Source: an uncultured Oscillibacter sp. (GTDB lineage Bacteria > Bacillota > Clostridia > Oscillospirales > Oscillospiraceae). Taken from it: 45,832 nt of DNA. This document shows, piece after piece, positions 34,217-45,832 of this stretch. Where the stretch lies: contig CATLJA010000006.1 of NCBI GenBank assembly GCA_949959305.1, positions 1-45,832 of the forward strand, written 5' to 3'. The translations under genes were made by a program, and so were the position numbers. The notes beneath the pieces are model-generated. The model saw only the letters and a list, made by a program, of their open reading frames with translations. It did not search any database and was not told the DNA's origin. Each line of letters starts with the position of its first letter. Position 1 is the first letter of the stretch.

Positions 34217-34849
34217 CTATGCTTCCTTGGGAATGTGGCGCACCACCCTGCCGCAGTCCACGTGGGTGCCCTCCGGCAGGACGGCGCAGCGCTCAATGGT
34301 GGCGGCGCTGGAGATGATGCAGCCCGGGCCGATTTCCGCCCCGCTGCCCACGGCGGCCCGGGCGCAGACCACCGTTCCATAGCCCAGAACCGCGCTGGGG
34401 GACACAGTGGCGTCCGGATGGACCAGCACCGGCAGGACAAACCCCGCCCGAGCCAGCTCCCCCAGCCAGCGCATCCGCAGGGCCCGCTCCCCCACCGCCG
34501 GGATGGCCACCGGGAATTCCTCCGCCCAGCGCTCCAGGTTGGAGCAGGGCCCCAGCGTTTCCGTCTTCCCCGTGTCGTCGTCCAAAAAGGCGATCCGCCG
34601 GAACACGTTCAGCCGCTGGGCCAGCTCCCGCACCTCCTGGCCGTGGCTGCCCGCCCCTAAAATCAGCAGGTTCAGCTCCCGCACCCGGATATTCCGGCGG
34701 AGAACCTCCTCCCGCTTTGCCGCCGCCTCCTCATAGCTCCTGCCGTAGCAGCAGCCGTACAGCAACCGGCCCTCCGGGCTCCGGCCCTTGGGGTAGCGGG
34801 CCTCAAAGCGCCCGTCCGCGCGTTTTCTGATATTGTCGCCTTGGCGCAT
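34217..34849 (-). CDS. PglD-like acetyltransferase with integrase-arm-like N-terminus
   Basis: This 210-residue protein appears to be a fusion. Residues 1-52 (GDNIRKRADGRFEARYPKGR, then YGRSYEEAAAKREEVL) look like the arm-type DNA-binding domain at the N-terminus of tyrosine recombinases. Residues 58-210 resemble PglD: LLILGAGSHGQEVRELAQ for UDP-sugar binding and hexapeptide turns from 144. Where C. jejuni PglD has the catalytic IEHEC, this protein has IERCA, so the His is absent, and the beta-helix stops about 50 residues early. The ATG at 34849 follows GGAGGG at 7 nt. As first gene after the locus promoter, it could be a regulator as much as an enzyme. Confidence 0.7.
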   Translation of the reverse strand: MRQGDNIRKRADGRFEARYPKGRSPEGRLLYGCCYGRSYEEAAAKREEVLRRNIRVRELNLLILGAGSHGQEVRELAQRLNVFRRIAFLDDDTGKTETLGPCSNLERWAEEFPVAIPAVGERALRMRWLGELARAGFVLPVLVHPDATVSPSAVLGYGTVVCARAAVGSGAEIGPGCIISSAATIERCAVLPEGTHVDCGRVVRHIPKEA

Positions 34850-37754: not shown

Positions 37755-40517
37755 TTAGTAGTCCATTCTCCAGTAGATAGCAGTGACCTCGAAGTCGCTG
37801 TTGTAGGACAGAGCCACGTAGTCATAGCGGACGCCGATGTCGCCCTTGCTGATGCCCTTCCAGGTGCTCTCAACAATACGGGTGTTGGTGGCATTGCCGT
37901 CCACACGGTAGAACTTGCAGCCGTCAGCCAGGTCGTAGGTATCGCCGCCATCGACCTCGATGGTCTCGCCGGTAACCTTATCAACGCTGGTAGCAACGAC
38001 ATAGCCCTTGCCGTCAGCGGCGATCTCGTCGGCCATGTCGGCCTCATACAGACCGTCCTCAATGCTGAAGGTGCTCAGGGTGACGTTGGTGCCGCCCAGC
38101 AGCTGGGCAATGACGCTCTGGGTCTTGGTGTCGTTCCAATTCAGCTTGATGCGGTTGTTGATGGTGCCGTCCACAACGCCCTTGAAGGCATAGTACTCGT
38201 TGCTGCCGTCGCTGCTGAGCTTCTGGTTGGTGTTGGCAACCAGGAACAGGTCGGTGTTGGTGCGGTTGCTCACATCCAGAGTAGTAGAATCGCTGGCGTC
38301 AACATACAGGAACTTGGCATAGGTCTGGTTGGCGCGGGTCATGGCGCTGTACAGGATCTTGCCGGAGCCAGTGCCGTCCTGCTTGCCGTCCACACTGGTG
38401 ATCTCAGGCAGGTTCTTCACGCCCTCGTACACCTTAAAGGTGTCGGCCTTGGTCTTCACGATGATGACGGTAGCGCTGTTGACACGGACAGTGTTGCTGT
38501 CAAGCTCGACGTTGCTGGCAGCCTTAGCGCTGGTATCGCCGATCTTGAAGTTGTTGGTGCCTTCGCTAGCGCGGTCAGCATCCTCATGGGTGTTGCTGTT
38601 CATCATGTTGGTGCAGGTCTTGCCGTCCGTGGTATTCACAGAGGGCTTGGTCAGCGTGTAGCGGCCGTTGGCGTTCTCGCGGTAGGTGACCCACTGACCA
38701 ATCCAGCAGGTATCGCTGCCGCCGGCATGGCTGGCGCTGTTGCTGTTGCCGTAGAGCTTATCGGTGCTGACAACCTTGGTGGTGCCGTCGGCAAACAGGA
38801 GCTCAGCCTCGTAGGTGTTGCGGCCCACGGCGCTGCGAACGCCGGCGTCCAGAACCAGAGCAAAGTTCTTGTTGTTGTCCTTGCCCTCGTTGAAGTACAG
38901 GACGTTGCCCTGCTTGTCGAGGTAAGCGGTGATGCTGGTGCGGATATCCTCGCTCTTAACCTTCTGGGTAGCCATCTTGCTGTACTTGTACTCGGTGGAG
39001 CCCAGGGTGAAGCTCTCCTGGTCGGTGTAATCCTTGACCTCGCCCTCAACGGTCTCGGCCTTGGCCAGCTTCTTCACGGAAGCCTTCGAGCCATCCAGCT
39101 TGTAGGCATAGTTGAAGGTCACGATGTCGCCAACATCGAACTTGTCGGTGTCGAAGGTATCGCCGTACTTGTCGCCATCCAGGAACTTGCCGGTCATGGC
39201 GCTGATGGTAGTGGCATCCTCCCAGTCGTCGCCCACGGGAGCGATCTCGACGTTGGCGGCGTGCTTGCCCTCGGCGGCGTTGACGGAGACAACCTCGCCG
39301 ACGTAGGTGTTGATCACCACGATGGTGCCAGCCACCTTCTGGGTGCCGCTCTTGAAGGCCTCAATGGTGCAGCCGGCGCCGGTGCCGATGCGCTCGCTGT
39401 CGGCGATGCTGTTGTCGTCGATAGCCAGAATCATGTCCGCGGCATAGGTCCTGCCACTGCTGTCTTCATTATCCAGGTCACTCAGCCAGTCGGGACCCTC
39501 GTCCTCATAGTCGGTACCAGCACCCAAGGTGTAGAAGTTCTGGGGAGCAGCGCCGTCGATGTACACAGCAAACTCCTTGGTGGTGGAGGTCAGGTTCAGG
39601 TCGTCGTACAGGTCGGCCATGGTGACATAGCCCTCATAGCTGACGTCGGCGGTATCGGTGTAAGAGCCGATCTTGTCGCCCTTCCAGGTCCACATGTGCT
39701 CGGGACGGCCGAAGCTGTCGCGCTCGCCGCTGTTCAGGATCAGGCGGGGGAAGTGCTCCTCGGCGAACTCAATGTAGCCGCCGCTGGAGATGTTGCCGTC
39801 GTTGCGGTCGGTGGTGGTGCCGGTGACAGTGGTGTCATAGGTGCGGTAGGTGGCGTTGCTGGCCTTCTGGCTGATCTCAACGCCGCCGACAACGATGGTG
39901 CTGCCGGGGACCTTGTACTCCACGGTCCGGGACTTCAGGGTGTTGAAGGCGTAGAGGCAGGCCTCCTCACGGGTGACAGCCTTGGAGCCGACAAAGTCGT
40001 CCTCCAGGTCTTTGTCCAGGCCGACGCCGTTCACCAGCTTGGCAACCTGGATGCTCCAGTTGGCGCCGGACAGGCCCTCGTTGGCGGAGTCATAACCCAG
40101 AGCGCCCAGCAGCATCTTCATGAACGCATAGCCGGTCAGGGTAGCGCCGGGCTGGAAGGAGCCGTCGCCGTAGCCGCCGATGATGCCTTCCTTCGCGCAG
40201 TAGGCGATGTAGCCCGCGAACGTGCTGTTGGCGGGAACATCCTTAAAGGGAGCGGTGCTGGCCGTCAGGTTGCTGGCGGCAGCGGGGCCCAGGATCAGGT
40301 TGCAGATGATCTTGGAAGCGGCGCCGCGGGTCAGGGTCGCTTCGGGACGGAAGTCGCCGTCGGCATAACCGTCGACAACCCCGATGGTGGAAATCACGTC
40401 GATGGCCTCATCATAAGTGATGGAGTCCGCGTCCGTGAAGTCCTTGGCGCTGGCGCCCAGAACGGTCAGGGACATGACCATAACCAGAGCCATCACCAGA
40501 GAAAGGAACTTCTTCAT
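37755..40517 (-). CDS. SLH-domain S-layer-type surface protein
   Basis: This 920-residue secreted protein has a signal peptide ending around residue 24 (VMSLTVLGASA-KD) and three S-layer-homology domains in residues 25-205: DGYADGDFRPEATLTRGA, GGYGDGSFQPGATLTGYA and a more divergent third ending in AVTREEACLYAFNTL. The rest, 210-920, is a Thr/Asn/Asp-rich beta-structured region without known motifs. SLH domains bind pyruvylated cell-wall polysaccharide. Uniform codon use, a strong promoter, a long leader and a strong terminator suggest very high expression. GGAGG is 12 nt from the ATG, rather far. It lies next to the glycan locus, whose product may serve as its anchor or decorate it. Confidence 0.92.
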   Translation of the reverse strand: MKKFLSLVMALVMVMSLTVLGASAKDFTDADSITYDEAIDVISTIGVVDGYADGDFRPEATLTRGAASKIICNLILGPAAASNLTASTAPFKDVPANSTFAGYIAYCAKEGIIGGYGDGSFQPGATLTGYAFMKMLLGALGYDSANEGLSGANWSIQVAKLVNGVGLDKDLEDDFVGSKAVTREEACLYAFNTLKSRTVEYKVPGSTIVVGGVEISQKASNATYRTYDTTVTGTTTDRNDGNISSGGYIEFAEEHFPRLILNSGERDSFGRPEHMWTWKGDKIGSYTDTADVSYEGYVTMADLYDDLNLTSTTKEFAVYIDGAAPQNFYTLGAGTDYEDEGPDWLSDLDNEDSSGRTYAADMILAIDDNSIADSERIGTGAGCTIEAFKSGTQKVAGTIVVINTYVGEVVSVNAAEGKHAANVEIAPVGDDWEDATTISAMTGKFLDGDKYGDTFDTDKFDVGDIVTFNYAYKLDGSKASVKKLAKAETVEGEVKDYTDQESFTLGSTEYKYSKMATQKVKSEDIRTSITAYLDKQGNVLYFNEGKDNNKNFALVLDAGVRSAVGRNTYEAELLFADGTTKVVSTDKLYGNSNSASHAGGSDTCWIGQWVTYRENANGRYTLTKPSVNTTDGKTCTNMMNSNTHEDADRASEGTNNFKIGDTSAKAASNVELDSNTVRVNSATVIIVKTKADTFKVYEGVKNLPEITSVDGKQDGTGSGKILYSAMTRANQTYAKFLYVDASDSTTLDVSNRTNTDLFLVANTNQKLSSDGSNEYYAFKGVVDGTINNRIKLNWNDTKTQSVIAQLLGGTNVTLSTFSIEDGLYEADMADEIAADGKGYVVATSVDKVTGETIEVDGGDTYDLADGCKFYRVDGNATNTRIVESTWKGISKGDIGVRYDYVALSYNSDFEVTAIYWRMDY

Positions 40518-40736
40518 AGGTGGTTGTTTCCTCCTTTTTCGTTGGCCGGCCGCTTCCGCCCTTCCGCCTCCGGGAGGCTGCGCTTCCTCCCCTCCGCGGT
40601 CCGGCTTCGGCCTCCGGCCTTTTCAATTTTTGAAACAGCGCCGCCTTTCCCGGTCGCCCCGGTATACATACCGCGGCTAGCCAATACCAGTATCTGTACC
40701 GGCGCTTCCAGCGGAGCAGGGCTGTTCCATGTGCGT
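40518..40736 (-). other. Long structured leader of the SLH-protein mRNA
   Basis: From the promoter to the ATG is about 210 nt without a gene. The middle is GC-rich and can form several stems (for example CGGCCGGCC near 40547 and CCTCCGGGAGG near 40566), and the end carries AAAAAGGAGGAAACAACCACCT before the ATG. Long leaders of this sort are known to stabilise S-layer mRNAs. Confidence 0.55.
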
Positions 40737-40765
40737 ATCATAGCAGACCGTTTCGAAGAATGCAA
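40737..40765 (-). promoter_or_regulatory. Promoter of the SLH-protein gene
   Basis: TTGCAT (40765-40760) and TATGAT (40742-40737) are exactly 17 bp apart on the minus strand. The ten bases TTGCATTCTT are the same as at the glycan-locus promoter at 34.9 kb. Confidence 0.85.
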
Positions 40766-40845
40766 GAGGGTTGGGGGGAGTGTAACAAAACTGTAACAAA
40801 GCGGGAAACTCCCGTTTTTTTGTCCAAACGCTGGCGAAACTGGCA

Positions 40846-40872
40846 GGCGCGGCCTCACGTGAGGCCTGTCCG
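40846..40872 (-). repeat. 27-bp inverted repeat bracketing the replication module, left copy
   Basis: It carries the perfect palindrome GGCCTCACGTGAGGCC flanked by CGGACA on one side and CGCGCC on the other (minus-strand reading). It matches 44593-44619 in inverted orientation at 26 of 27 positions. It lies 10 bp past the stop codon of the primase-helicase gene. Confidence 0.8.
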
Positions 40873-40882
40873 GGCGGAAGCC

Positions 40883-42700
40883 TCACCGCCCCTCCTCGAA
40901 GCAGGAGAACGCCGGGTAGTACCGCAGCGGCGAGGGGTCCCCCAGGGCGGCGGAGCGGTTTTTCAAAATTTTCAGCTCCAGCTCCCGGGGATCCTTTTTC
41001 TTTTCTTCCTCCAAATTGAAGTCCCGGCCTCCCGCCCCCCGGGCCTGGAGGCCCAGCAGCACGTCCGCCGAGTAGTCGATGCCGCCGGACTCCTTGAACG
41101 CCGCCATGGTGGCGGAGGCGTTGTAGTTCTCTCTATTAAAAGAGGAGATGGCCAGCACCGTCAGCCCCCGGCTCCGGGAGAGCTTTTTCAGGGCGCAGAC
41201 CGCCCGGTCCAGGTTCTGCTTATCGGTGAAATGCACGTCGGCGGGGGCGATAATCTGGAGGTAGTCCAGGAAGACCACAGGCTTCCGCCCCGTCTCGGCG
41301 ATATGCCGCTCCACGCCCCTGCGGATGTCCTCCAGGCCCGTCTCGTGGTCCCCCTCTACAATCCAAATCCGCTCCGCCAGCTCCGCGTAACGCCGCTGGG
41401 CCGCCTCCAGGTGGGCGGCCTCCTCCGGCGCGGCCTTCTTCCTCCGCCGGGGGTCCAGCACCCCCCGGACCGTTTTCGACAGGGTCCGGCCCCGGCTGGC
41501 GTCGGTCTGGAAGGTGATGCGGGAGATGGAGCGGGCCATCAGCTCGAAGGCGCTCATTTCCAAGGTGAAGACCAGCACGTCCGTTCCGGCGGCGGCCAGC
41601 TGGTCCGCAAGCTGCATGCAGAAGGCCGTCTTGCCCAGGGAGCTCACCGCCCCCAGGACGTAAAGCCCCTCGTAAAGCCCGCCGTCCAGGGCCCGGTCCA
41701 GGCCGGGGAAGCCCGTGGGCCGGGGGGGCGGCGCGCGCCGGATGTGCTCCAGCAGGGCGGGCATGCGCCCGGCGGCGGAAAGGCTTTCATAGGGCGGGTG
41801 GGCGTTCTCCCAGGCCCTGACGCAGTCCGCCAGGAAGGCCCCGGCGGCGGCCCGGTCCGCCAGGAGGAATTCGTTTAAATCCTTCCCCTGGGGGAGGGGC
41901 GGGCACCGGCTCAGCCAGGGGAGCTCCTCCAGCAGGGCGGAGGCCCACGCCTCCCCCGGGCCGTCGCTGTCCGGCAGGACCAGCACCGGGCCGGGCGGCT
42001 CCAGCTCCCGCAGGATGGCGGCGGCCTTCTCCCGGTTCCCGGCCCCGTTCAGCGCGGCGGCGGGGAAGCCCAGTTCTTCGGCGCTGAGGGCGTCGAAGGT
42101 CCCCTCCGTCAGGAAGACGGGGCGGTCCTCCCGCAGCAGCTCCGGCTGGAACAGGGGCGAGGGCGCGCCCTTTTCGTTGAGGTAGCGCTTTTCGTCCACG
42201 CTCCGCCGGACGGCCCGCCCCCCCTCGCAAGGGAGCACCACGCAGCGGCGGGCCGGGTCGTAGCCCAGGCCGAACCGCAGGACGGTTTCCGGGGACAGGC
42301 CCCGCCGGGCGAAGTAGTCGGTTTTGTCCGCGTGGGCGGCGCAGTCCTCCAGGTAGGACGGGGACGGCGGGGGCGCGGCGCTTTCGGGAGGCTTCCGCTT
42401 CGGAGCGGCCCGCTTCCGCCCCTCCGGCTCCACGGTTCCCGTGCCGTAGCGGCGGCTGGCCTCCGCCAGGGCCTCCCGGGGGGAGGGGAGGTTTTCGTCC
42501 ATGGCCAGGAGGTCGAACAGGTCGTAATCCGCCCCGCAGGCAAAGCAGTGGACCTTGTGCCGGCGGGAATCGTAGCCCATGGAGGGGTTCCGGTCCAAGT
42601 GCTCCGGATTCAGGCAGCGGAAACGCTTGGCGGGGTTGATCCCCCGCTCCCGGAGGTAGTCCGCCAGGCGGGGGCGGAGGGAGTAAAAGGTGTCGGGCAT
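40883..42700 (-). CDS. Plasmid/phage-type primase-helicase
   Basis: This 605-residue protein joins a primase and a DnaB-type helicase, as in phage T7 gp4. A CHC2-like zinc finger is at 29-55 (Cys29, His34, Cys52, Cys55). The TOPRIM primase core has TEGTFDALS at 198-206 with Glu199 and LPDSDGPGEA at 242-251 with Asp244 and Asp246. The helicase has Walker A AVSSLGKTAF at 351-360, an LEMSAFELMAR motif near 380, and Walker B VVFLDYLQ with Asp479. The start at 42700 follows AAAGGAGG; the longer frame upstream runs through the origin. It lies downstream of iterons and an initiator-like gene, the organisation of a plasmid replicon. Confidence 0.88.
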   Translation of the reverse strand: MPDTFYSLRPRLADYLRERGINPAKRFRCLNPEHLDRNPSMGYDSRRHKVHCFACGADYDLFDLLAMDENLPSPREALAEASRRYGTGTVEPEGRKRAAPKRKPPESAAPPPSPSYLEDCAAHADKTDYFARRGLSPETVLRFGLGYDPARRCVVLPCEGGRAVRRSVDEKRYLNEKGAPSPLFQPELLREDRPVFLTEGTFDALSAEELGFPAAALNGAGNREKAAAILRELEPPGPVLVLPDSDGPGEAWASALLEELPWLSRCPPLPQGKDLNEFLLADRAAAGAFLADCVRAWENAHPPYESLSAAGRMPALLEHIRRAPPPRPTGFPGLDRALDGGLYEGLYVLGAVSSLGKTAFCMQLADQLAAAGTDVLVFTLEMSAFELMARSISRITFQTDASRGRTLSKTVRGVLDPRRRKKAAPEEAAHLEAAQRRYAELAERIWIVEGDHETGLEDIRRGVERHIAETGRKPVVFLDYLQIIAPADVHFTDKQNLDRAVCALKKLSRSRGLTVLAISSFNRENYNASATMAAFKESGGIDYSADVLLGLQARGAGGRDFNLEEEKKKDPRELELKILKNRSAALGDPSPLRYYPAFSCFEEGR

Positions 42701-42915
42701 GGCGGGGCCTCCTTTCAAAAAGAAGGGCTTGCGGCGGACGAAGGAGCCGCGAAGCCCGTAAGATATCTTAATATATCTATAAGGGGCGGGAGACGCTTTT
42801 GGGCGGGCTTGAAAAAGATGGCGGCAATTCTGGAAATTCCGGCGGAAATTTCCGTTTTGACGGTTTAAAGGTTGGAAAAACCGGGAAGAATGCCAGGGGC
42901 GGATTCTTCCCTTCT

Positions 42916-42996
42916 GCACGGGCCCGGGTCGGAGGAGCACGGGTTGAAGTCGGCTTTGCACGAAACCGGGTGTGGTTCTGCACGGGTTGAAGTCGG
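42916..42996 (+). repeat. Four iterons with 21-22 bp period
   Basis: Units start at 42916, 42937, 42958 and 42980. The second and fourth are identical, GCACGGGTTGAAGTCGG; the first (GCACGGGCCCGGGTCGG) and third (GCACGAAACCGGGTGTGG) share the GCACG start and the G-rich end. Spacings of 21, 21 and 22 bp put the units on the same face of the helix, as expected for initiator-binding iterons. Confidence 0.75.
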
Positions 42997-43021
42997 AACC
43001 GGACGGCGGACGGAGGGCGGC

Positions 43022-43134
43022 TGTGGAAAGAAACGCGGCGGTTTTCCACATTCGAGGCGGTTTTTACTCTCGGACCGCCGCGTTTGGGGCGGGGAGCGCC
43101 GTTTCTGTGGAAAAGGTCCGGCGGGCTTTCCACG
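43022..43134. promoter_or_regulatory. Cluster of four DnaA-box-like sites
   Basis: TTTTCCACA occurs at 43042-43050 (plus) and 43106-43114 (minus), CTTTCCACA at 43022-43030 (minus) and CTTTCCACG at 43126-43134 (plus). The first two differ from the TTATCCACA consensus at one position. The alternating orientation and closeness to iterons suggest host DnaA helps at this origin. Confidence 0.55.
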
Positions 43135-43192
43135 AGAGCCGGTGACAGCCATGACGGGCTTCCGGGAAGTCAGACCTGGATTCGTGCGGGGG

Positions 43193-44458
43193 TCATTCCT
43201 CCGGGGGCTCCGCCTGGGCGGGCAGCCTTTTCCGCTTTGCCTCGGAGGGCTTGACGGGCTTGTCCAGCTTTTTGACGTAGCCGTTGACGGCCTCGTCCAC
43301 TTGAACGGTCATCCGGGCGGCAAGGAAGGTGTTGATGTTGTCGTAGTCCAGCTCCAGCCGCAGGGAGTTGCCGGAGACGGCGGCGATTTCCTCCATAGCC
43401 TTCCGGAAGGGGCGGAGGATGGCCTCGTCGTAATTGCGGTTTTTGACCTCCTCCTTGGTGGGAAGGCCGATGTAGCGGATGATGTCCTCCACCCGGACGC
43501 GGAAGGTGCCGTCCTCCGCCAGGGGGGCCTTGCGGGCCCGGTAGAATAAGTAGAAGGCCATGCGGTAGGCGTTTTCCCCCAGGTGGCCCATCCAGTCGGG
43601 AATGAGCTGGTAGTACTGGGTCAGGAAGTGGCGCACGTTCTCGGCGAAGGCGATGCGGACCTCTCCGGTGTATTTTTTGATGCTGGCCTCCGTGGCGAGA
43701 TGGGTGATGTAGAAGGATTCAAAGTATTTTTTGAAGGACTCCGCCGTCAGCTTCATGCCCGTGATGGACTGCACGTCCTTCTTCAGCTGGCGGTAGGCCG
43801 CGTCCCGGGATTTCAGCCCCGCCCAGTCCATGTATTCCTTGATGTTGAATACGGCGGAGTTGTTCCTCCAGTTCTGGCTGTTGCCCTGCATGAGGGTGTA
43901 TATGAGGAGGCGGTGGGCCGTCCAGCTGAGATTCCGGGTGTACTCCTGCACCGCCTCGAAAATCAGGGTCATCTCGTAGTCCTTGTTCCGGTAGCGGATG
44001 TTCTGGTTTCCGTAGGCGTCCGGCTCCGAGTAGGTGACGGTGATTCCGTTGGAGGCGGGGTGGAACTCCCGGCCCCGCTTCATGTTGGCCCACACGCCGC
44101 AGATGAAGTAGGTGGCGGGGCTGTTGCCCAGCACGTCGTACTCCGTGGCCTTGGCGGTGAGGTTCTCCTCAAAGACCGCCAGCAGCGCCGCGGCCAGGGC
44201 CTCCGCGTCCGGGTCCCCTCCGGCGGCGGCCTCCGGCAGGCGCTCCGGCCCCCCGTGGGCCTCGAAAAAGCTGTCCAGCAGGGGGTAAATCTGCTGGAAG
44301 TCGTATTGGGCCAGCTGGCGCTTGAAGGCGGCGGGCTTCTTCTCCTGGAGGGGCTTCAGGCGGCGGTAGGTCTGGAGCATCTCCTGGAACTGGTCGCTTT
44401 CCAGGAAGCGCAGCGGCGCGTCCTTCAGCGCCTCCAGGGATTCCGGCGATTGGGTCAT
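43193..44458 (-). CDS. Replication initiator-like protein
   Basis: This 421-residue protein has central and C-terminal winged-helix-like regions: NLSWTAHRLLIYTLMQ, then NIKEYMDWAGLKSRDAAYRQ, and VEDIIRYIGLPTKEEVKN later on, a pattern like Rep_3/RepA plasmid initiators, which bind iterons with two winged helices. The N-terminal 130 residues are helical and unassigned. The ATG at 44458 follows AAAGGAGG with the same GCCC-GCC spacer as the helicase gene, suggesting a common origin for the two. The iterons lie directly downstream. Family assignment is by pattern, so moderate; the context of iterons and a primase-helicase supports it. Confidence 0.7.
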   Translation of the reverse strand: MTQSPESLEALKDAPLRFLESDQFQEMLQTYRRLKPLQEKKPAAFKRQLAQYDFQQIYPLLDSFFEAHGGPERLPEAAAGGDPDAEALAAALLAVFEENLTAKATEYDVLGNSPATYFICGVWANMKRGREFHPASNGITVTYSEPDAYGNQNIRYRNKDYEMTLIFEAVQEYTRNLSWTAHRLLIYTLMQGNSQNWRNNSAVFNIKEYMDWAGLKSRDAAYRQLKKDVQSITGMKLTAESFKKYFESFYITHLATEASIKKYTGEVRIAFAENVRHFLTQYYQLIPDWMGHLGENAYRMAFYLFYRARKAPLAEDGTFRVRVEDIIRYIGLPTKEEVKNRNYDEAILRPFRKAMEEIAAVSGNSLRLELDYDNINTFLAARMTVQVDEAVNGYVKKLDKPVKPSEAKRKRLPAQAEPPEE

Positions 44459-44526
44459 GGCAGGGCCTCCTTTGGCGGGCGGGGTGGTTTTGGAAATGGA
44501 AAAGCTGCATGGAAAGTTTGATATGA

Positions 44527-44535
44527 AGTATAGCA
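44527..44535 (-). promoter_or_regulatory. Extended -10 promoter of the initiator-like gene
   Basis: TGCTATACT on the minus strand is a good extended -10 element about 70 nt before the ATG at 44458. No good -35 is present (TTTCCT at 17 bp). Confidence 0.6.
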
Positions 44536-44592
44536 TAAAAGGGGGAAAAAGGAAAGGGAAAGTTTTCGGGCGGGCGCTTCGGGCGGAGAGGC

Positions 44593-44619
44593 CGGACAAG
44601 CCTCACGTGAGGCCGCGCC
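44593..44619 (+). repeat. 27-bp inverted repeat bracketing the replication module, right copy
   Basis: CGGACAAGCCTCACGTGAGG followed by CCGCGCC. It is the inverted partner of 40846-40872 with one mismatch. It lies between the Mor-like gene (stop at 44637) and the initiator-like gene. GGGCGGAG and CTCCGCCC arms outside it can extend the hairpin. Confidence 0.8.
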
Positions 44620-44636
44620 CCGGGGAGCTCCGCCCC

Positions 44637-44912
44637 TCAGCTCCTGGTCCCGCTGAGAATTTTCCGAATCTGCCGCTCGCTGAGGCCGAAGCGGATTCCC
44701 AGCGCCCGGAAGTTTCCCCCGTCGAACCGGGCCCGGATGTCCCGGTCCCGGGCCTCCCGCTCCAGGGACTCCGTTTTGGGGATGTAGAGGCTCTGCCCGC
44801 CCCGCAGGCGGGTGAGCCGGAGGAAGCCGTCCAGCCCCAGGCTGTCCGCCAGGTCCCGGTATTCCGCTGGAACGTCCTCCGGGAGAATGGAGTGAAAAAA
44901 CGTGCCGCTCAT
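44637..44912 (-). CDS. Mor-family small transcription regulator
   Basis: This 91-residue protein has the whole Mor pattern: LPEDVPAEYRDLADSLGLDGF at the start, GGQSLYIPKTE in the middle (the dimer strand), RDIRARFDGGN and a C-terminal helix-turn-helix ALGIRFGLSERQIRKIL at about 69-86. Mor proteins activate middle genes in Mu-like phages; small stand-alone versions are common in Firmicutes. The ATG follows AAAGGAGC at 6 nt, and TATAAT at 44939-44934 is a likely -10. It might control the replication module directly downstream. Confidence 0.85.
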   Translation of the reverse strand: MSGTFFHSILPEDVPAEYRDLADSLGLDGFLRLTRLRGGQSLYIPKTESLEREARDRDIRARFDGGNFRALGIRFGLSERQIRKILSGTRS

Positions 44913-45121
44913 AAAAAAGCTCCTTTCGGTTTTATTATAATGACTGCGGGCGGACGGCGGGTCCGTATGGCGCCGCCCTCCGGGCGCGGAAGGACGGCCC
45001 TCAAGGAAGGAAGCCCTTCTATAAAGAGAGGGCGCGGGGCCGGAGATTGCACGGCGGTATGCAACTTCCGGCCGGGTCTATTAAAAATTTGTTAAAAACA
45101 GGCGGCCGGAGCGGCGGGGGC
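44913..45121. other. Divergent intergenic region with a long dyad
   Basis: No gene is seen. It separates the Mor-like gene (minus) from the exporter gene (plus). A dyad at 45038-45073 pairs GGCCGGA with TTCCGGCC and TTGCA with TGCAA around a short loop, and includes TGCACGG, reminiscent of the iteron start. It could be a Mor-protein operator or a hairpin. Confidence 0.45.
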
Positions 45122-45150
45122 TTGCAAAAAAGGCCGGGCTGTGCTATGGT
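45122..45150 (+). promoter_or_regulatory. Promoter of the small exporter gene
   Basis: TTGCAA (45122-45127) and TATGGT (45145-45150) are 17 bp apart on the plus strand; the start would be near 45157. Confidence 0.7.
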
Positions 45151-45207
45151 AGGACGGTAATTTTGACAGAAAAAGGAGAAAGGCGGGCCTCGGCCCGACG
45201 GAAAGCG

Positions 45208-45678
45208 ATGTTTGGCGAAAGTGCGTTTGGAAACTTGGCGGCGGTGTTTTTCATGTCCATGGTCCCGGTGGTGGAGCTGCGGGGGGCCATCCCCTTCGGC
45301 ATTGCCGCGGGGCTTCCGGCGTGGGAGGTGTACTGCGCCGCCGTGCTGGGGAACCTGGTTCCGGTTCCCTTTATATTTCTTCTGCTGCGGCATGTGTTCG
45401 CCCTGCTGCGGCGGGTTCCCTGGCTGGGGGAAAAGGTGGACTGGCTGGAGCGCCGGGCCCATTTGAAGGGCCGGACCGTGCGGAAGTACCGCCTTTTGGG
45501 GCTGGTGCTGTTGGTGGCGGTGCCCCTGCCGGGGACCGGGGCCTGGACCGGAGCCCTGGTGGCCGACGTGCTGGACATCCGGGCCAGGACGGCCCTCCCC
45601 GCCATCGCCATTGGAGTGCTGGTTGCCGGGGCGCTGGTAATTGCCGCCTCCTGCGGCGTGGCGGAGCTGTTTTTCTGA
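45208..45678 (+). CDS. COG2426/Sm_multidrug_ex small membrane protein
   Basis: This protein of about 156 residues has four or five TM helices and the family signature VPVVELRGAIPFGIAAGLP near the start, then VPVPFIFLL, a KYRLLGLVLLVAVPLPGTGAW block and a small-residue final helix. The family is annotated as putative small multidrug export protein, but its function is not established. The ATG at 45208 is preferred; a TTG at 45163 would be almost leaderless. A GGAG site lies 30 nt before the ATG, separated by a CGGGCC/GGCCCG hairpin that may bring it closer. It is the only plus-strand gene here. Confidence 0.85.
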   Translation: MFGESAFGNLAAVFFMSMVPVVELRGAIPFGIAAGLPAWEVYCAAVLGNLVPVPFIFLLLRHVFALLRRVPWLGEKVDWLERRAHLKGRTVRKYRLLGLVLLVAVPLPGTGAWTGALVADVLDIRARTALPAIAIGVLVAGALVIAASCGVAELFF

Positions 45679-45692
45679 GCGCTTGAAAAGAG

Positions 45693-45730
45693 CCGCCGGA
45701 CCTGTGGTTTCAGGCCCGGCGGTTTTCTTT
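45693..45730 (+). terminator. Terminator of the small exporter gene
   Basis: CCGCCGGACCTG and CAGGCCCGGCGG form a 12-bp stem with one mismatch and a 6-nt loop, followed by TTTTCTTT on the plus strand, 15 nt past the stop codon. Confidence 0.9.
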
Positions 45731-45832
45731 ATGGGTGGATGTTCCGGCGTGGCCGCCGCCCTGGGGCCCCCGCGAAGCGGACAGACAAGCCGGACATACC
45801 CCGCCCCGCCCGGCGGAAAAAACAGGCCGCCC

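What the first reader, a model, noticed from the sequence alone, without database searches (positions are those of the whole stretch)
40846..44619. Iteron plasmid-type replicon beside an S-layer gene
An initiator-like protein, four 21-22 bp iterons, DnaA-box-like sites, an AT-rich tract and a fused primase-helicase make a complete replication module. It sits between an SLH surface-protein gene and ordinary genes. Either the window belongs to a large plasmid or chromid carrying a full surface-glycan locus, or a plasmid core has integrated into the chromosome. Both would be unusual for this group.
Basis: partly seen in the sequence, partly recalled or inferred. Interest (0 to 1): 0.75.

Follow-up and report, generated by a model that had tools for sequence, protein, structure and literature searches.

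The report
Phage-derived plasmid with S-layer locus
This stretch is a complete plasmid-style replication origin descended from a virus-like plasmid; it most likely drives a separate circular DNA in a gut bacterium (Oscillibacter) that carries the cell's surface-layer and surface-sugar genes, which relatives keep on the chromosome.

Summary
Window 40846-44619 holds an intact Rep_3 initiator (model matches pi, RepE, RctB), four 21-22 bp iterons, a conserved AT-rich element and a CHC2-Toprim-DnaB primase-helicase. The interval's ends are inverted-repeat arms, each with the palindrome GCCTCACGTGAGGC, the only two copies in the 2.37 Mb assembly. In four other genomes the same core overlaps the end of a plasmid-type parB, so I read it as parS.

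Relatives show the source: a phage-plasmid-like element (parAB, contractile-tail, capsid, terminase, Mor, rep, helicase). Origin and partition genes stay intact where phage genes are broken or absent (G020, G331, G000); G021/G022 show the reverse.

Which replicon? In relatives lacking the module at this site the flanking genes are neighbours on chromosomes (G341, G357). But G331's 44-kb module contig appears circular, and this genome's C6 and C7 appear to join at both ends, giving a circle of at least 91 kb. GC skew steps up at the module in 6 of 6 contigs. No closed genome settles it. New variant of a known kind.

The parts
40846..40873 (.). left arm of inverted repeat; palindromic parS-like site, core 40852-40865 GCCTCACGTGAGGC
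   Evidence: same core overlaps the end of parB in L037-L040
40883..42700 (-). primase-helicase (CHC2 zinc finger - Toprim - DnaB C domain), 605 aa
42759..42784 (-). conserved AT-rich element (candidate DNA-unwinding element) before the helicase gene
   Evidence: recognisable by eye in 9 of 9 loci
42913..42933 (-). iteron
42934..42954 (-). iteron
42955..42975 (-). iteron
42977..42997 (-). iteron
43042..43050 (+). DnaA-box-like site (TTTTCCACA), weak
   Evidence: recalled consensus
43106..43114 (-). DnaA-box-like site (TGTGGAAAA on + strand), weak
   Evidence: recalled consensus
43193..44458 (-). rep: Rep_3-type replication initiator, 421 aa (ATG start)
44592..44619 (.). right arm of inverted repeat; parS-like site, core 44600-44613 GCCTCACGTGAGGC
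44637..44912 (-). Mor-family transcription activator, 91 aa (phage regulator type)
   Evidence: Pfam PF08765 E=7.1e-15, PHROG late transcriptional activator
45163..45678 (+). smdr: small multidrug export family gene, right-hand flank gene
   Evidence: PF06695 E=5.7e-42; beside SLH in G341 and G357
37755..40517 (-). SLH-domain (S-layer) protein, left-hand flank gene
   Evidence: PF00395
35056..37548 (-). Wzy/O-antigen-ligase-like gene of the surface-glycan locus, used as marker
   Evidence: sub-threshold PF04932
255..866 (-). TetR-type gene at the left end; with the signal-peptide start beyond it, first part of an efflux operon that seems to continue at the left end of contig C7

Best explanation
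The module is the origin of a circular secondary replicon (large plasmid or chromid) descended from a phage-plasmid-like element; the replicon now carries the S-layer and surface-glycan locus that related strains keep on the chromosome. Working: Rep (WH1-WH2) binds the four iterons and opens the AT-rich element; the replicon's own primase-helicase is loaded and starts forks without host DnaB/DnaG; ParB, encoded with ParA on contig C7, binds the palindromes as parS and segregates the circle. In other species the element also has capsid, terminase and contractile-tail genes; in this genome none was found on C6 or C7. Shown: gene content, iterons, parS-like sites, intact frames under purifying selection, conserved cyclic gene order. 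Inferred: Rep and ParB binding, origin firing, circularity (two draft genomes, neither closed).
For: Rep fold, iterons, helicase. parS: in 4 of the 6 genomes hit the core overlaps the end of parB; 24 cores in 465 kb of module contigs (with G022C59), 0 in 480 kb of G341, 0 in 389 kb of G335 C1. Circle 1: G331C20 (44,075 bp), last 122 bp match the first at 117 of 122; a MurJ frame split over the ends reads through (497 aa), and glycan-MurJ-CapD is the order of G341. Circle 2: C6 left end has TetR plus a signal-peptide start, C7 left end the rest of an OEP gene, HlyD and RND; the operon is whole in G335 C4. C7 right end has copG-parA-parB-VanZ, which in G332C25 precedes tail...rep. Cyclic order parA-parB-...-rep-hel holds on one contig in G020, G331, G332, G334, G335. 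GC-skew step at 15-kb arms 0.034-0.161, 6 of 6 upward. 1 doubtful tRNA in 446 kb; controls 7 in 400 kb, 3 in 389 kb. dN/dS: rep 0.157/0.687 (G000-G020).
Against: No rep-positive genome is closed. G331C20's end overlap has 5 mismatches, so two MurJ copies on a chromosome could mimic it; C6 and C7 share no exact overlap, and that join rests on a split operon. In G341 (one 3.58 Mb contig) and G357 (with obgE, recG) smdr-SLH-wzy is chromosomal. Rep, hel and ParA identities track DnaA (Mantel r 0.735, 0.613, 0.684; p 0.0006, 0.0034, 0.0032; 7 genomes), as for a chromosomal locus, though also for a stably kept chromid. G021 and G022 lack rep and the ParA ortholog but keep phage genes. The skew step is weak in G334 (0.034), partly follows gene orientation, and the widest same-genome control (ten G335 contig starts) has sd 0.074, maximum 0.121.
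Confidence: 0.6

Rival explanations
1. The element is integrated in the chromosome between smdr and the SLH gene and has been inherited there, with phage genes decaying; the origin may be silent or a second chromosomal origin.
For: Site and glycan order chromosomal in G341; smdr-SLH-wzy chromosomal in G357. One wzy match each in G000, G020, G029, G342. Identities track DnaA. DnaA present in 8 of 9 rep-positive genomes searched.
Against: Apparent circles in G331 and G000; skew step; rep/par kept while phage genes are lost; smdr lies between TerL and MCP in G007, G029, G020, so no simple insertion explains the order.
Confidence: 0.3
2. A live phage-plasmid that still makes particles and has picked up host surface genes.
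For: G007, G029, G332/G342, G334, G335 keep full-length capsid and terminase matches and most tail genes.
Against: No portal or tape-measure gene recognised; the CHAP endolysin was matched only in G334; G000 and G331 have no capsid or tail match on the module contigs.
Confidence: 0.05
3. The palindromes are transposon ends or operators of the Mor-like protein, not parS.
For: They bracket rep-hel exactly in the window; in L041 two lie just upstream of a mor gene with no parAB match within that 17 kb.
Against: Up to five copies per contig, some inside genes; G331 has a site but no mor match on its contig; overlap with the end of parB in L037-L040; no transposase seen in the interval.
Confidence: 0.1

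Closest known systems
Iteron plasmid origins with Rep_3 initiators (pi of R6K, RepE of F, RepA of pPS10); RctB of Vibrio chromosome II
   Same: WH1-WH2 fold, tandem 21-22 bp iterons, AT-rich element
   Different: About 145 residues before the matched fold; own fused primase-helicase gene follows at once
Phage-plasmids and their plasmid or integrated derivatives (PMC10879196, PMC11652158; passages read)
   Same: Phage capsid, tail and terminase genes joined with rep and parABS; gene loss in either direction
   Different: Oscillospirales host; compact contractile-tail set; parS scattered through the element; carries or adjoins an S-layer/glycan locus
Chromids such as Vibrio chromosome II (PMC6090056, search listing only)
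   Same: Iteron initiator, own ParABS, host-type genes on board
   Different: Much smaller (about 44 kb and at least 91 kb as judged here); phage-plasmid descent; circularity unproven
T7 gp4-type primase-helicases
   Same: Zinc finger, Toprim and helicase on one chain
   Different: Helicase part nearer DnaB than gp4

Membership tests
Rep_3 iteron initiator | WH1 domain | tested here: met
   Pfam PF01051 47.3 bits, cut-off 22.4
Rep_3 iteron initiator | WH1-WH2 fold | tested here: met
Rep_3 iteron initiator | tandem iterons next to rep | tested here: met
   4 in the window, 3-4 in each of 8 other loci
Rep_3 iteron initiator | iteron binding and origin activity | not testable with these tools
   needs footprinting and replication assays
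ParABS partition system | ParA ATPase and ParB with ParB_N and HTH | tested here: met
   in this genome on contig C7
ParABS partition system | parS near operon or origin | tested here: met
   palindromes flank the module; overlap parB end in L037-L040
ParABS partition system | ParB binds the site | not testable with these tools
   inferred from position only
Phage-plasmid | capsid, terminase and tail genes together with plasmid rep and par | tested here: met
   met in relatives G332, G334, G335 on one contig
Phage-plasmid | same gene set in the window's genome | tested here: not met
   no MCP match in G000; no capsid, terminase or tail match on C6 and C7; genome 79.5% complete
Plasmid or chromid | separate circular molecule | tested here: inconclusive
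   apparent closure in G331 and G000, no closed genome; other contigs show no terminal overlap
Chromid | carries core genes | tested here: inconclusive
   full glmS on G020C129, pflB on G331C20; copy number elsewhere not searched

The most novel reading that the evidence does not exclude
A chromid born from a phage-plasmid: in several Oscillibacter species the sole copy of the S-layer/glycan locus (and in places glmS or pflB) has moved from the chromosome onto a phage-plasmid-derived circle with its own iteron origin, primase-helicase and ParABS, so a former phage replicon now holds the cell's surface identity, and selection keeps its replication and partition genes after the phage genes decay.
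Probability: 0.4. Interest if true: 0.87.

Novelty: new variant of a known kind. Interest (0 to 1): 0.65.

Why it matters
Phage-plasmids are known to turn into plasmids or prophages by gene loss. Here one element family in one genus shows both outcomes: rep/par kept with phage genes lost or broken (G000, G331, G020), and phage genes kept with rep and ParA not found (G021, G022). If a phage-derived replicon carries the only S-layer/glycan locus, surface type, phage sensitivity and host contact of a common gut bacterium could change with one molecule. Cultured strains make this testable.

Tried and rejected
Rechecking (the start of G331C20 recurs near its end) led, and the odds were changed for that reason.

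Contig-length cap as a plasmid test: the 120 listed rep clusters reach 115.6 kb, but wzy of the same region has the same cap, so it says nothing. Equal longest-contig lengths (74087, 51345, 115601) in both lists suggest rep and wzy share contigs in other assemblies; this is an inference. PLSDB: no plasmid with this Rep; 48 records match the helicase, all under 60%; among the 20 listed the best is 43% over half its length, 40% over nearly its whole length. Phage collections: one unannotated 4.9 kb clone, one 8 kb IMG/VR contig. A pcrA-like frame on G334C9 is only a C-terminal fragment and was dropped. The tRNA in G332C25 lies inside the helicase frame. Rep against solved structures by sequence: none. 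No Rfam match in 40400-45832. Rep was not searched genome-wide in G341, G355 or G357: there the evidence is no ParA ortholog and no rep, phage or parS match in the 60-80 kb fetched. att sites were not searched. Integrase genes: none seen in the window interval; G029C77 has one between wzy and SLH (over cut-off) and a sub-threshold one between SLH and helicase; G335C14 has a sub-threshold one about 12 kb beyond parA. Papers: 'phage-plasmid' with 'Oscillibacter' 0 in the library; 'Oscillibacter', 'S-layer', 'prophage' 1 paper, listing only. Strand-controlled skew agrees on both sides in G029, on the one side comparable in G020 and G331, hardly in G007's left side, not in G334's left side; G335's left side (one opposing gene) goes the other way.
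Full report
What is there. The window is the whole of contig C6 (45,832 bp) of a 163-contig, 2.37 Mb assembly, 79.5% complete. Its genus includes O. valericigenes An890 and other Oscillibacter records (G007 and G020 have contigs of the same lengths and parA coordinates as those named records). The interval contains rep (43193-44458, -) and a primase-helicase (40883-42700, -), with four iterons (42913-42997), DnaA-like sites and an AT-rich element (42759-42784) between them. Its ends are the arms of a 28-nt inverted repeat; the core CTCACGTGAG occurs nowhere else in the assembly. Outside lie a Mor-family gene (44637-44912), smdr (45163-45678), and on the other side the SLH gene and a long glycan locus.

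More than chance. The iteron core occurs 5 times against a mean of 0.77, with 0 of 300 shuffles reaching 5. All 9 rep loci examined carry 3-4 iterons at that place, 30 in all. Rep is 55-78% and the helicase 57-69% identical to the window's; 8 reps, 7 helicases and 6 ParAs have no internal stop.

The palindrome. AANCTCACGTGAGNTT hit 6 of 295 genomes of the order; the reversed control hit 3, once each. In four of the six (L037-L040) the site overlaps the end of a plasmid-type parB, in three copies in one. In the other two (L041, L042) no such parAB lies in the 17 kb fetched; in L041 two sites are just upstream of a mor gene. ParB matches Spo0J and Noc structures, and the core resembles the chromosomal parS (recalled). 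In Oscillibacter contigs with the module I counted 22 exact cores, and 2 more on G022C59; none in 480 kb of G341 or 389 kb of G335 C1.

Source. Relatives have rep and helicase at one end of an element with copG-like gene, parA, parB, tail and baseplate genes, sheath, tube, capsid, terminase and usually mor: G332C25, G334C9 and G335C14 on one contig (mor not matched in G335); G007 and G029 with parAB on another. No portal or tape measure was recognised. G020 has a capsid frame with three stops and a broken terminase. G331's contig and C6 plus C7 of this genome have copG, parA, parB, VanZ, rep, helicase (and mor in C6), but no capsid, terminase or tail match. G021 and G022 (77% and 87% complete) keep capsid and tail genes but have no rep match and no ParA ortholog. 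The ParA ortholog (80% identity or more) is in 5 of 61 genus genomes, own included; next by score are ParAs of 36-37%.

Chromosomal counterpart. In G341 (3,576,111 bp, one contig; dnaA at 1.97 Mb) smdr and an SLH gene are 548 bp apart, followed by wzy, the glycan genes, MurJ, CapD and VanZ (MurJ and VanZ there by eye or by similarity to the others). In G357 smdr and SLH are neighbours with obgE and recG upstream, smdr pointing the other way. So the surface locus has a chromosomal home in relatives without the module at that place. In the window mor-rep-hel lies between smdr and SLH; in G007, G029 and G020 smdr lies between TerL and MCP.

Signs of a separate circle. G331C20: its last 122 bp match its first 122 bp (117 of 122), and a MurJ frame split over the ends reads through; the joined order (glycan, MurJ, CapD) is that of G341. 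On that contig also pflA-pflB and parAB. G000: C6's left end has TetR and the signal-peptide start of the next gene; C7's left end has the remainder of an OEP gene, HlyD and RND; the four genes form one operon in G335 C4, 40%, 42%, 61% and 60% identical. C7's right end runs parA-parB-VanZ, as in G331 and, before the tail genes, in G332C25. If both joins hold, C6 and C7 (91.5 kb) plus a gap form a circle with the cyclic order of G331 and of the single-contig relatives. No exact end overlap supports the C6-C7 join.

Other signs. With 15-kb arms GC skew rises at the module: 0.141 (G335C14), 0.161 (G020C129), 0.125 (G029C77), 0.111 (G331C20), 0.082 (G007C16, one short arm), 0.034 (G334C9); the sign changes in 5 of 6. 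With 10-kb arms the range is 0.039-0.139, with 20-kb arms 0.039-0.163. Controls at 15 kb: G341 370 positions, sd 0.037, maximum 0.117; G335 C1 359 positions, maximum 0.062; ten G335 contig starts, 110 positions, sd 0.074, maximum 0.121. G341 shows no such step at its smdr-SLH junction. Gene orientation confounds this. Module contigs (446 kb) hold one doubtful tRNA. Rep, helicase and ParA are under purifying selection. Against: identities track DnaA.

Reading. I favour a phage-plasmid-derived large plasmid or chromid that has taken over the S-layer/glycan locus, about 0.6, over integration, about 0.3. PMC10879196 (passages read) reports P1-like phage-plasmids turning into plasmids or integrated prophages; the integrated ones it describes still encode replication and partition genes, so keeping them is no proof of a free circle. 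PMC7198777 (passages read) recounts an integrated plasmid origin taking over in S. elongatus lacking dnaA; here DnaA is present in 8 of 9 rep-positive genomes searched.

Noticed in passing
L044:17645-18871 and equivalents in G334C9, G335C14, G332C25, G029C77, G020C129, G022C59: Arrays of iteron-like repeats (TGCACGA...TCGGA, often 33, 45 or 78 bp apart) are written into the reading frame of a tail-region gene (protein repeats like LHEITSEF), with a parS site among them in some. The pattern has 0 hits in 400 kb and 2 in 389 kb of control sequence. Possibly Rep-titrating sites inside a phage gene.
   Followed up: partly
L011 5800-6680 and 8852-8873 (Butyricicoccus): Iteron-like 45-bp repeat array upstream of rep, and a parS palindrome inside the helicase reading frame.
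   Followed up: partly
window 34217-34849: A PglD-type gene begins with about 50 residues that look by eye like the start of a phage integrase; similar proteins in G020 and G331 (by eye) and G022.
   Followed up: no
G020:C129 47795-52342 (L107); G007:C39 (L112): Cas9 (NCBIfam; Cas1, Cas2 and array by eye) lies near parAB in G020, and a Cas9 fragment lies on the parAB contig of G007.
   Followed up: no
G000:C7 36992-41805 (L110, L111): Next to parAB: a serine resolvase and a TIR/SEFIR-domain protein, then a citrate lyase-like operon (by eye).
   Followed up: no
G020:C129 22882-25761 (L106): A DltB-like MBOAT gene (below its cut-off) and a DHHW-like gene (by eye) lie between rep and the broken terminase; a similar DHHW-like frame lies beside mor in G022C59.
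   Followed up: no
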